40,105 nucleotides of DNA from Spirochaetota bacterium. GTDB lineage: Bacteria > Spirochaetota > Leptospiria > Turneriellales > Turneriellaceae. The notes under the pieces were generated by a model. That model made no database searches. It saw only the letters and a program-made list of their open reading frames with translations, and was not told the origin of the DNA. The stretch covers positions 1-40,105 of the forward strand of contig CAUJII010000172.1 of assembly GCA_963205035.1 (NCBI GenBank), given 5' to 3'. The translations under genes were made by a program, and so were the position numbers. The number at the start of each line of letters is the position of its first letter. The stretch's first letter is position 1. This document shows, piece by piece, positions 2,310 to 28,216 of this stretch.

Positions 2310-2947
2310 ACCAAAAACGATTCGTAATTTTTTTACTGCTTCTGATAATTGTTTTTACAGGCGGTATTTTTTACGCGCTAAACAGCACGGGCATTGTGCG
2401 GGCTGCAGATGTTTTTCCGTTCTTGCAATCGAAGAATCCCGTGCGTGTAGAAGACAAAGATTTTCCGACCGAAGTCGAGAAGGTGGAGTTTCAAAAATGG
2501 GAACAAAAACTTATCGAGCGCGAAGAAGCTCTGGCGCGCCGTGAAGCTGAGCTCAAAGAAAAAGAGACAGGGAGCGATGAAATAAAACGCGAACTCGACG
2601 AGAGTAAGAACGCGCTCAAGGCAGAAAAAGAAAAATTCATCGCCGCGCAGCGCGAGTGGGACGATCGACAAAAGAAAATCAAGGACTTATCGGAGAAAGT
2701 GCGGAACATGCCACCCGATAAAGCGCAAGAGATGATGCAAAACTGGCGCGACTTCGATATCATCGACGTCATGCGACAGATGGATAAAGATGCAGAACTC
2801 GAAGGCTCTCAATCGATCGTGCCATACCTCCTAACGCTTTTTCAAAGCGAGCGTCGTGCAGAAATTACGCGTAAGATGATGCTGCCTTCGATAACGCAGA
2901 ACGACGCGAGCGCAAGCCAAGAGCAGTCGGCAGAGAATCAGCGGTAG
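2306..2947 (+). CDS. flbB: FlbB/MotE-like periplasmic flagellar collar protein
   Basis: N-terminal TM segment, long coiled coil, MPPDKAQEMMQNWRDFDIIDVMRQMD; position after fliJ matches spirochaetal flbB. Confidence 0.7.
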   Translation: MNQKRFVIFLLLLIIVFTGGIFYALNSTGIVRAADVFPFLQSKNPVRVEDKDFPTEVEKVEFQKWEQKLIEREEALARREAELKEKETGSDEIKRELDESKNALKAEKEKFIAAQREWDDRQKKIKDLSEKVRNMPPDKAQEMMQNWRDFDIIDVMRQMDKDAELEGSQSIVPYLLTLFQSERRAEITRKMMLPSITQNDASASQEQSAENQR

Positions 2948-2997
2948 TGTGGGAGTGTAGGCCGGAACTTGCTGGCACGATTTCTTCTGCGCCGATT

Positions 2998-3138
2998 TCA
3001 TTCTGGGAAAAAGTCGGCATCAAGTTTTTTCACATAATAGGTTTTGTGTGTCGTGACGCCTACGTTGTATTCTATAAGTAGCTCGGCTAGTTTTACACCG
3101 TCGATTAAGACAATGCGTTTGGGCGACCGGGATATGAT
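2998..3138 (-). pseudogene. C-terminal remnant of an Mrr-type (type IV) restriction endonuclease
   Basis: Reverse-strand translation between stops: IISRSPKRIVLIDGVKLAELLIEYNVGVTTHKTYYVKKLDADFFPE*. Resembles the Mrr_cat C-terminus (LIDG..LA.LMIEYNVGV..). Preceded by an in-frame TAG with no catalytic core visible upstream. Confidence 0.75.
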
Positions 3139-3197
3139 CTAACACCTCAAAATTGGAATGTACCTTTTCAGCGGTATTGCTGTCTGAAATCGCAAAC

Positions 3198-3599
3198 TTA
3201 CCGTATCATATAGCCGGCCTTATATTCTCTTGGGGACAGAATTTGAGTATCTTCAAAATTTTTCAACACCAGCAGATCTTGGTCACCGGTAATCAAAATT
3301 TCAGCTTCTACGGTTCTCGTAACCCATAGAACATTGTCGTCATCCGGATCACGACAAATTTCGGGCTTTTCCCCCTTAGGGATGGCGATGTTTACCCTTT
3401 CGCCCAAGTGCTTCAGGGTATCGCCGAGAGCATCTGTCGGAATCTTGAACTTGTCCCGGCATTTTCTACTGAATTCCTTTATTATCCATTCAGAAAGCCA
3501 AATCTCATGATTATTTAGCACAAAATCAAAAATTTCGGAAGAAACGCCCGGGAAAATCAGAGCCGAAATCAATACATTTGTATCGAATACAATCTTCAA
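3198..3599 (-). CDS. PIN-domain toxin-like ribonuclease
   Basis: MKIVFDTNVLISALIFPG start; conserved acidic positions (CRDPDDDNVL, ILITGDQDLL); overlaps an upstream RHH antitoxin-like ORF. Confidence 0.85.
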   Translation of the reverse strand: MKIVFDTNVLISALIFPGVSSEIFDFVLNNHEIWLSEWIIKEFSRKCRDKFKIPTDALGDTLKHLGERVNIAIPKGEKPEICRDPDDDNVLWVTRTVEAEILITGDQDLLVLKNFEDTQILSPREYKAGYMIR

Positions 3600-3814
3600 G
3601 AAATGGCCCGAAATACGTCTTCTTCGCTATAGAAACCTGCCCTCTCCGCATAGGGTCTCAATTTAGCCCTTATGCGATTCGTTTCCTGCCGATAGAGGTA
3701 CTGTTCCAAAGCCTTTTTGATGATTTCACTACGGGTTGTCTTGTTGGTCTTAACTGACTTATCAAGCTTCTTGCTAAGTTCTGGCTGCAGACTCACTGTA
3801 ATAATCTTCCGCAT
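3596..3814 (-). CDS. Ribbon-helix-helix (CopG-like) antitoxin
   Basis: ITVSLQPELSKKLDKSVKTNKTTRSEIIKKALEQYL is an RHH pattern; 4-nt overlap with the PIN toxin. Confidence 0.8.
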   Translation of the reverse strand: MRKIITVSLQPELSKKLDKSVKTNKTTRSEIIKKALEQYLYRQETNRIRAKLRPYAERAGFYSEEDVFRAIS

Positions 3815-3875: not shown

Positions 3876-4034
3876 GGGCGCGGGATTTGTTAGGGGGGCA
3901 CCGTAAAACTGAAAGCAGGCGTCTTCGCCGCTTTAGCAGCAACTTTGCGCGCAAAGTTGTGAGGCTTTCAGATTTACGGAGCATTGAATGCAATGTTGTC
4001 TGTGAAGTTACCCCCCCCAACAAATCCCGTGCCC
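3876..4034. mobile_element. MITE-like non-autonomous element, copy 1
   Basis: Terminal inverted repeats GGGCGCGGGATTTGTTAGGGGGG.../...CCCCCCAACAAATCCCGTGCCC; internal inverted repeat CCGTAAAACTGAAAGC/GCTTTCAGATTTACGG; central palindrome CAACTTTGCGCGCAAAGTTG (3940-3959). Near-identical to the reverse complement of 28012-28168. Confidence 0.85.
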
Positions 4035-26138: not shown

Positions 26139-27887
26139 TTACACTGCGGCCGTTTCTAAGAGCGCCACGAGTCCTGCCAAATAACGCTTGCTCATTGCAT
26201 AAAAGTGTGCGGCAACTTTTGTCTTATGGTTTGCAAGTTCGGTAAGGTTATTCTTCTGCGCAATCGTCACTTGTTGTGCCAACAGAATCGCCACATAAAT
26301 TCGCGCAAACGCGGCAACCATATCAATCGAGACGGCTTCTTTTTCTGTGCGCTCTTTATAGAGTGGCACGAGCTTCACAAGAGTTTCGATGTCGGCATTG
26401 AGTTTTCCTTTGAGGCTTGCGTCGCCAATTTTCTGAGCCTCTTCACGAAGGTGTGTGAGTAGGAAACCGCCTTCGCTAAGTCCCTGAACTACGCCGCCAA
26501 TTGCGGCCACGGCCTGCAACTGAGTTGTGCCTTCGTAGATGGTACAAATACGCGCGTCGCGATAAATTTTTGCAATGTCGTATTCCTCGGTGTACCCTGA
26601 GCCGCCGAAAATTTGCAGTGAATGGTACGCAACAAAGTTGGCCTCTTCGGAGCAGAAGAGCTTCGCTGTGGGAGTCAAAAGCTTTGCTAATTTATCGAGG
26701 CGCAGGACAGTCTCGTTTTTACGAACTGTACGCTCGTCGCCCGTTTCGGCGAGAAGTTTTGCAGAAAGCCCGTCGTAATGGTCGACGATTTCACATGCGC
26801 GGTAGGTCAGCGCACGCATTCCCTCGACCAGAGCTTCGTTGTCGTCTAAAATACGTCTTACAGCTGCGAGCTTGTCGATAGTGTCACCGAACTGCACGCG
26901 CTCCGATGCATATTTTTTGCCTTCTTGGTGTGCGGCTTCCGCGATGCCTAAAGACTGCACGGCGATCCCCATGCGCGCCCCATTCATCATTCCCAAAGCG
27001 TACCGCACAAGCCCCAAGCCTTCCTCGCCGATGAGCTCTGCCTTGCTGTTCTCAAAAACAATTTCACAAGTCGGAGAAATATGGAGTCCCATTTTGTCTT
27101 CGATGCGCGCCACTTCAATGTCGGAGCTATGGACTAAGAAGAACGAAAGACCCTTGGCCCCGGCACCTCCCGAGCGAGCGAGAGTTAAGATGACGCTGGG
27201 CTTGTCGCCGATGCCGCAACCATGCGTAATGAACCGCTTGGTGCCGTTGAGCCGCCACACTCCGTCTTCGCCTTTCGTCGCGCGCGTCATAACACGCGAG
27301 AGATCCGAGCCATAGTTGGGTTCGGTAAGAGCCATCGCTCCCGTCACTTCACCGGCCGCCATTTTGGGAACCCATTCATCGGACATTGTTTTGCTACCAT
27401 AGCGTTCGATGACCTCTGCAAGGTTAAAGCAACCGAGGGCAATCCCGAAAGCCGGGTCGGCGCGCGAGACCAACTCGAGCACGACCGATGCCGCAGTGAG
27501 GTTCATGCCAATACCACCGTGGTGGCGCTCCATCGCATAACCCAAAAGACCGGACTGGCCGAAGAGGTCGATGAGGCGGATCATATCGGGGGGGAAAGTT
27601 ACTTTGCCGTCGTGGAATTTGAGGCCATGCTTATCCATCGCGCGGATGACTGCCGCGACTTCCTTTCCAGAAAGTTCGCCGATTTGCTGCCAGACGGCCT
27701 TGTAACCTTCGATGGCTTCTTGGGTATTATTGGGCGCAAACTGCAGATGTTCGTTATTTGTTTTTTTGAACTCCGCCGCGTCTTTGAAATTTTGTTCTTT
27801 GAGCGGGACGATTGTCGCCCAATCGACGAAATGGTCGAGAGTAAATTGAAGATCTTTGTTTGTGTCGAAATAGTTACCTTGTACCAT
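26139..27887 (-). CDS. Acyl-CoA dehydrogenase
   Basis: GAMALTEPNYGSDLSRVMTRA, LNGTKRFITHG, FGGSGYTEEYDIAKIYRDARICTIYEGTTQLQ. Confidence 0.93.
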   Translation of the reverse strand: MVQGNYFDTNKDLQFTLDHFVDWATIVPLKEQNFKDAAEFKKTNNEHLQFAPNNTQEAIEGYKAVWQQIGELSGKEVAAVIRAMDKHGLKFHDGKVTFPPDMIRLIDLFGQSGLLGYAMERHHGGIGMNLTAASVVLELVSRADPAFGIALGCFNLAEVIERYGSKTMSDEWVPKMAAGEVTGAMALTEPNYGSDLSRVMTRATKGEDGVWRLNGTKRFITHGCGIGDKPSVILTLARSGGAGAKGLSFFLVHSSDIEVARIEDKMGLHISPTCEIVFENSKAELIGEEGLGLVRYALGMMNGARMGIAVQSLGIAEAAHQEGKKYASERVQFGDTIDKLAAVRRILDDNEALVEGMRALTYRACEIVDHYDGLSAKLLAETGDERTVRKNETVLRLDKLAKLLTPTAKLFCSEEANFVAYHSLQIFGGSGYTEEYDIAKIYRDARICTIYEGTTQLQAVAAIGGVVQGLSEGGFLLTHLREEAQKIGDASLKGKLNADIETLVKLVPLYKERTEKEAVSIDMVAAFARIYVAILLAQQVTIAQKNNLTELANHKTKVAAHFYAMSKRYLAGLVALLETAAV

Positions 27888-28011
27888 GTTTCCTCCGGCG
27901 TTTTTTTAGTCCACAGCTTAGGCGGATGGATAAACGCGTTGATATTTATCGACGTGTTTGCGGATGAAGACACCCTGTCAATTTAATCGTGTATCTGCAC
28001 GGTCAGCAACC

Positions 28012-28168
28012 GGGCGCGGGATTTGTTGGGGGGTAACTTCACAGACAACATTGCATTCACTGCACCGTAAATCTGAAAGCCTCGCAACTTTGCGCGCAAA
28101 GTTGCTGCTAAAGCGGCGAAGACGCCTGCTTTCAGTTTTACGGTGCCCCCCTAACAAATCCCGCGCCC
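28012..28168. mobile_element. MITE-like non-autonomous element, copy 2, with 8-9 bp flanking direct repeat
   Basis: TIR GGGCGCGGGATTTGTT.../...AACAAATCCCGCGCCC; flanked by CAGCAACCG at 28004-28012 and 28169-28177; central palindrome GCAACTTTGCGCGCAAAGTTGC (28084-28105); opposite orientation to copy 1. Confidence 0.9.
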
Positions 28169-28216
28169 CAGCAACCGCTGTATTCCCGAAAGCTCTTTAC
28201 AGTACATGCCGGGCAG

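What the first reader, a model, noticed from the sequence alone, without database searches (positions are those of the whole stretch)
28004..28177. MITE-like 157-bp element with an 8-9 bp target-site duplication
The element runs from GGGCGCGGGATTTGTT to AACAAATCCCGCGCCC, has nested internal inverted repeats and a central 22-bp palindrome, and encodes no protein. CAGCAACCG flanks it on both sides (28004-28012, 28169-28177), the signature of transposase-mediated insertion. I do not recognise the family; an 8-9 bp duplication with G-rich ends would be compatible with several IS families (e.g. ISL3 or IS256 relatives), so the parental transposase is unknown.
Basis: partly seen in the sequence, partly recalled or inferred. 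Interest (0 to 1): 0.75.

Follow-up and report, generated by a model that had tools for sequence, protein, structure and literature searches.

The report
New mobile DNA repeat in Turneriella
The 157-base element is a genuine small "hitch-hiking" transposon (a MITE) that has copied itself to about ten places in a Turneriella-like spirochaete genome, and inside it sits a strongly conserved folded motif that also occurs on its own, mostly just after genes, across the genus.

Summary
The host genome (a draft in the genus of Turneriella parva) holds 10 near-complete copies, including the window's (the other nine 95-97% identical to it), in different gene contexts; a second lies in the window at 3876-4034. 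Six of ten carry 8-bp duplications (3 perfect, 1 perfect but displaced 4 nt, 2 at 7/8). Related elements with the same TIR design (GGGCGCGsGATwwnTYrGG) and 8-bp duplications occur in other species of the genus, including short ones lacking the interior. It is a new MITE family. The parental transposase was not found: four DDE families and Y1 were searched in seven genomes.

Unexpected: the interior (28069-28139) is a three-way-junction module, CTC-stem-TGCTAAAGC-stem-T, that also occurs free-standing (T. parva has at least 53 matches, nearly all free-standing), mostly just downstream of stop codons. Compensatory changes affect 18 of 25 pairs, wobble asymmetry suggests the opposite strand is the functional one, and Rfam has no match. 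The MITE is a new member of a known kind; the module may be an undescribed structured element.

The parts
28012..28168 (+). 157-bp MITE
   Evidence: 10 near-full copies in the host genome, TIRs, target-site duplication
28004..28011 (.). Left 8-bp target-site duplication CAGCAACC
   Evidence: compared with the other copies
28169..28176 (.). Right 8-bp target-site duplication CAGCAACC
28012..28033 (+). Left TIR GGGCGCGGGATTTGTTGGGGGG
   Evidence: same TIR design in relatives
28147..28168 (-). Right TIR
28069..28139 (-). Three-way-junction module (model R1 matches the + strand; wobble asymmetry points to the - strand as the folded, possibly transcribed one)
   Evidence: R1 match 85.2 bits; covariation; A-C versus G-T counts
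28084..28105 (.). Perfect 22-bp palindrome, stem 1 of the module
3876..4034 (-). Second MITE copy in the window, 96% identical, no target-site duplication seen
   Evidence: module at 3905-3975
26139..27887 (-). Acyl-CoA dehydrogenase gene; its start is 125 bp from the MITE
   Evidence: Pfam PF00441, PF02770, PF02771
28217..29401 (+). GGDEF-PilZ gene on the other side of the MITE
   Evidence: Pfam PF00990, PF07238

Best explanation
The element is a non-autonomous DNA transposon (MITE). A DDE-type transposase supplied in trans recognises the TIR (consensus GGGCGCGsGATwwnTYrGG) and inserts the element at a staggered cut, and host repair leaves an 8-bp target-site duplication. Shown: TIRs, repeated insertion at unrelated sites, 8-bp duplications, no coding capacity. 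Inferred: the DDE transposase, which is missing from, or unassembled in, the genomes searched. The family has subfamilies with different interiors between the same kind of TIR. In most of them the interior carries a conserved three-way-junction module. The module is a passenger as far as transposition goes, because 74-bp and about 80-bp relatives without it also have target-site duplications.
For: Ten near-full copies in the host, nine of them 95-97% identical to the window's, beside different genes. 8-bp duplications at 6 of 10 host copies, one of them displaced 4 nt, and at most related elements of the genus; shuffles never reach the observed number. TIR design shared across species while interiors differ. 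Short module-less members with duplications. Relatives lack an element at this position upstream of the acyl-CoA dehydrogenase gene.
Against: No transposase with matching TIRs was found. Four of ten host copies show no duplication, which could be decay, rearrangement or draft-assembly error. No strict orthologous empty site, because the neighbouring gene differs between species. The assembly is an incomplete draft (82%).
Confidence: 0.93

Rival explanations
1. REP/REPIN-type element moved by a RAYT (Y1 single-strand transposase), which leaves no target-site duplication.
For: Highly palindromic, intergenic and multicopy; Y1 transposases exist in five of seven genomes of the genus.
Against: 8-bp duplications. 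The host has no detectable Y1 transposase. None of the ten Y1 loci carries the module, and the T. parva and G006 Y1 genes are flanked by other palindromes.
Confidence: 0.03
2. A fixed regulatory or terminator structure, not a mobile element.
For: The interior module occurs free-standing near gene ends in T. parva, and the whole element folds very stably.
Against: Host copies lie in unrelated and mostly upstream or divergent regions, share sharp TIR boundaries and carry target-site duplications.
Confidence: 0.02
3. The MITE is a deletion derivative of an IS256-family insertion sequence, as the first reader suggested as one option.
For: The IS256 family makes 8-9-bp duplications (own knowledge). 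PF00872 fragments are found in the host and in two other MITE-bearing genomes, G005 and G006, and the host fragment sits at a contig end where an insertion sequence would break assembly.
Against: IS256 elements of G005 have unrelated TIRs. The host fragment has no close relative in 298 genomes of the phylum and its ends are unknown. MITE-bearing G002 and G004 lack PF00872.
Confidence: 0.2

Closest known systems
Bacterial MITEs in general (for example Correia elements, RUP, Nezha; own knowledge)
   Same: Short, non-coding, TIR-bounded, multicopy, target-site duplications, mostly intergenic
   Different: TIR sequence, 8-bp duplication and interior match nothing in the collections searched outside the genus; parent unknown
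IS256 and ISL3 families (candidate parents; own knowledge of duplication length)
   Same: Duplication length of about 8 bp
   Different: ISL3 transposase absent from the genus; the readable IS256 TIRs differ
REP/REPIN, BOX and ERIC type palindromic repeats (compared with the interior module)
   Same: Dispersed palindromic intergenic repeats, often at gene ends
   Different: Three-way junction with conserved CTC / TGCTAAAGC / T; not linked to the RAYT loci tested; no Rfam family matches

Membership tests
MITE | Terminal inverted repeats | tested here: met
   22-nt TIRs, 95% complementary
MITE | Target-site duplication of fixed length at several copies | tested here: met
   8 bp at 6 of 10 host copies, one displaced by 4 nt and two at 7/8, and at most related elements
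MITE | Short, no transposase gene, multicopy | tested here: met
   157 bp, 10 near-full copies
MITE | TIRs shared with an autonomous element that can mobilise it | tested here: inconclusive
   None found; draft genomes, and not every transposase family searched
ISL3-derived | ISL3 transposase with matching TIRs in the genome or genus | tested here: not met
   No PF01610 match in seven genomes; the host is an 82% complete draft
IS256-derived | IS256 transposase with matching TIRs | tested here: inconclusive
   Fragments present; the readable TIRs differ; the host fragment has no readable ends
IS1595-derived | IS1595 transposase with matching TIRs | tested here: not met
   Found only in T. parva and G001, none with GGGCGCG-type TIRs, none in the host
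REPIN/RAYT element | Y1 transposase flanked by the same repeat, and no target-site duplication | tested here: not met
   No R1 match at any of 10 Y1 loci; duplications present

The most novel reading that the evidence does not exclude
The MITE family is a vehicle for an undescribed structured nucleic-acid element of the Turneriella family: a three-way junction with near-invariant CTC / TGCTAAAGC / T bases and strong covariation. In free-standing form it lies in 3' untranslated regions, typically 44-50 nt after the stop codon of the gene transcribed in its functional sense. The MITE has captured it and spreads it to upstream regions.
Probability: 0.4. Interest if true: 0.65.

Novelty: new member of a known kind. 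Interest (0 to 1): 0.45.

Why it matters
It adds a well-delimited MITE family, with duplications and subfamilies, to a spirochaete lineage for which a limited literature search turned up no MITE. It also exposes a folded motif with exceptional covariation, shared by the MITEs and by dozens of free-standing gene-end repeats. That motif makes it testable whether mobile elements distribute an RNA (or single-stranded DNA) structure in these bacteria.

Tried and rejected
Parental transposase: PF12762, PF01609, PF01610, PF00872 and PF01797 in all genomes of the genus, with TIR inspection of the DDE loci; none matches. Collection-wide TIR scans: in GTDB genomes, hits outside the genus are unpaired and about as many as I would expect by chance; in IMG/VR, none. 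Single ends in G005 (C120, C152, C41) are truncated relics beside ordinary genes, not insertion sequences. Plasmid and phage collections: no match. Rfam: no family. Integron attC sites were considered for the module and dropped: copies are dispersed, not arrayed, and I saw no R'/R'' core sites on reading the sequences (no pattern search was run). Clean orthologous empty site: not available, because synteny breaks between species.

Full report
Observation. The element at 28012-28168 is as described: TIRs of 22 nt, an inner inverted repeat, and a perfect 22-bp palindrome at its centre. As a single strand it folds far better than shuffles (z -9.8). The flanking direct repeat reads as 9 bp in the window, but base 28012 is the first G of the element. 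The other copies show 8 bp, so the target-site duplication is CAGCAACC.

Copies. The host genome (2.61 Mb, 255 contigs, 82% complete) has ten near-complete copies including the window's; the other nine are 95-97% identical to it. There are also solo ends at C99 and C121 and some more diverged ends. One of the ten is a second copy in the window, at 3876-4034 minus. The copies lie beside different genes; one runs into the 3' end of an enoyl-CoA hydratase gene (C217) and the rest look intergenic. Duplications read: CAGCAACC (window), GATGCAGC (C16) and CTATCCAG (C217) are perfect; GAACTCGC (C225) is perfect but separated from the TIR by four extra bases; C126 and C177 match at 7 of 8; C176, C8, C172:3876 and C137 show none.

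Relatives. Searching 60 relatives by DNA finds matches only in the same genus; the TIR pattern was searched within the genus and, in exact form, in all GTDB genomes. Handle G004 has a 4,384,015-bp chromosome, the size published for Turneriella parva (PMC3746428). Their elements have TIRs of the same design but changed sequence and interior, and again 8-bp duplications. Two elements of G005 (74 and about 80 bp) lack the module altogether yet have duplications (8/8, and 7/8 after an end adjustment), so the interior is not needed for movement. Over 20 elements of the genus, 14 have flanking 8-mers with at least 7 identities; 20,000 shuffles of the right flanks never reached that, the maximum being 7. 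I chose the list by hand. It leaves out a few elements, and for some G005 elements the end was set 1-2 bases off the outermost TIR base when reading the duplication.

Insertion at the window locus. The non-coding region before the acyl-CoA dehydrogenase gene contains a motif shared by all the species compared (roughly AACGCGTTGATnnTTTTCGACGTGTTTT). The relatives continue from it without any element at this position; in G005 a different element lies about 340 bp further away with its own duplication. The next gene differs between species, so this is supportive but not a strict empty site.

Parent. Searches for PF12762 and PF01609, PF00872 and PF01610 in the genus found no transposase bounded by these TIRs. 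IS256-type fragments exist in the host (contig C122, first 146 bases) and in G005 and G006. G005 copies are decayed or internally deleted and have TIRs of about GCTCAATTCCTGTGTATAGA. The host fragment has no close relative in 298 genomes of the phylum. The parent stays unknown; an IS256-type parent remains possible.

The module inside. Many cross-species matches cover only the interior. Nineteen examples align readily: outer stem, CTC, stem 1, TGCTAAAGC, stem 2, T, outer stem. The structure, which I proposed by reading the same alignment, is supported by changes on both sides in 18 of 25 pairs (87 cells; shuffles average 24; slid controls at most 20). On 45 T. parva matches, aligned to the model, it is 20 of 25 pairs and 241 cells. 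The model finds 53 copies in G004, 28 in G005, 26 in G003, 12 in each of the host, G001 and G002, 5 in G006, 7 in G009 (another genus of the family) and 2 weak ones in G016 (same order); these are lower bounds because candidates were capped. No Rfam family matches. In the host, ten of the twelve matches are the MITE copies themselves, so in this genome the module is mostly carried by MITEs; in T. parva nearly all are free-standing.

Strand. Over 72 non-redundant modules the non-Watson-Crick cells include 34 A-C but only 8 G-T on the modelled strand. Of the 30 sequences with an excess of one type, 26 have more A-C. A-C on one strand is G-U on the other, so the strand opposite to the model looks like the one that folds. 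In the window that is the minus strand, the direction of the acyl-CoA dehydrogenase gene. Copies are related by descent, so the count is not a formal test. The low total of wobble pairs also fits a DNA palindrome kept identical by other means.

Place. Of 42 T. parva modules, 18 lie between two genes that point towards each other, with no longer ORF across them. In 29 of 42 the neighbour on the favoured side is transcribed in the favoured sense, and its stop codon is most often 44-50 nt from the module (longest-ORF gene models, not curated). The host's MITE copies, by contrast, are mainly in upstream or divergent regions. I infer that the module is a gene-end element which MITEs captured; the reverse order is not excluded.

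Verdict. A real MITE, a new family of a known kind. The shared module is the part worth following.

Noticed in passing
L135-L174 (T. parva, 3-5 kb stretches), mostly near locus position 2000: Free-standing modules sit inside larger composite palindromes (CAGGCTCCGG...CCGGAAGCCTG, then a second hairpin CAGTTTCC...GGAAACTG), with TAGCAG/CTGCTA at the outer ends overlapping the stop codons of the flanking genes.
   Followed up: partly
L208, L211, L212 (G005): Decayed and internally deleted IS256-type elements with TIRs about GCTCAATTCCTGTGTATAGA; this looks like a second family of deletion derivatives.
   Followed up: partly
L060 about 2918-3128 (host C4:22417) and L061 about 3197-3223 (host C122:8196): A second MITE subfamily in the host with TIR GGGCGCGGGATAAGTCAGGTGGGG and a different interior; the C4 copy has a 7/8 duplication, and a related element in G005 C139 has GCGCACCC on both sides.
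   Followed up: partly
L176, L177, L182, L184: Y1 (RAYT-like) transposase genes in T. parva and G006 flanked by their own perfect palindromes (for example TGTAGGGGTAGGTTTAAACCTACCCCTACA, GTTGCCACGGGTTTAAACCCGTGGCAAC), unrelated to the module.
   Followed up: no
window 3198-3814 (-): Two overlapping or adjacent small ORFs of 133 and 72 aa that read like a PIN-domain toxin and a ribbon-helix-helix antitoxin, directly beside the second MITE copy; by eye only.
   Followed up: no
L078 (G005 C59) against L079 (G005 C77): The short and long MITE forms differ by the module lying between 5-bp direct repeats GCAAC, which fits either a slippage deletion or an insertion of the module.
   Followed up: partly
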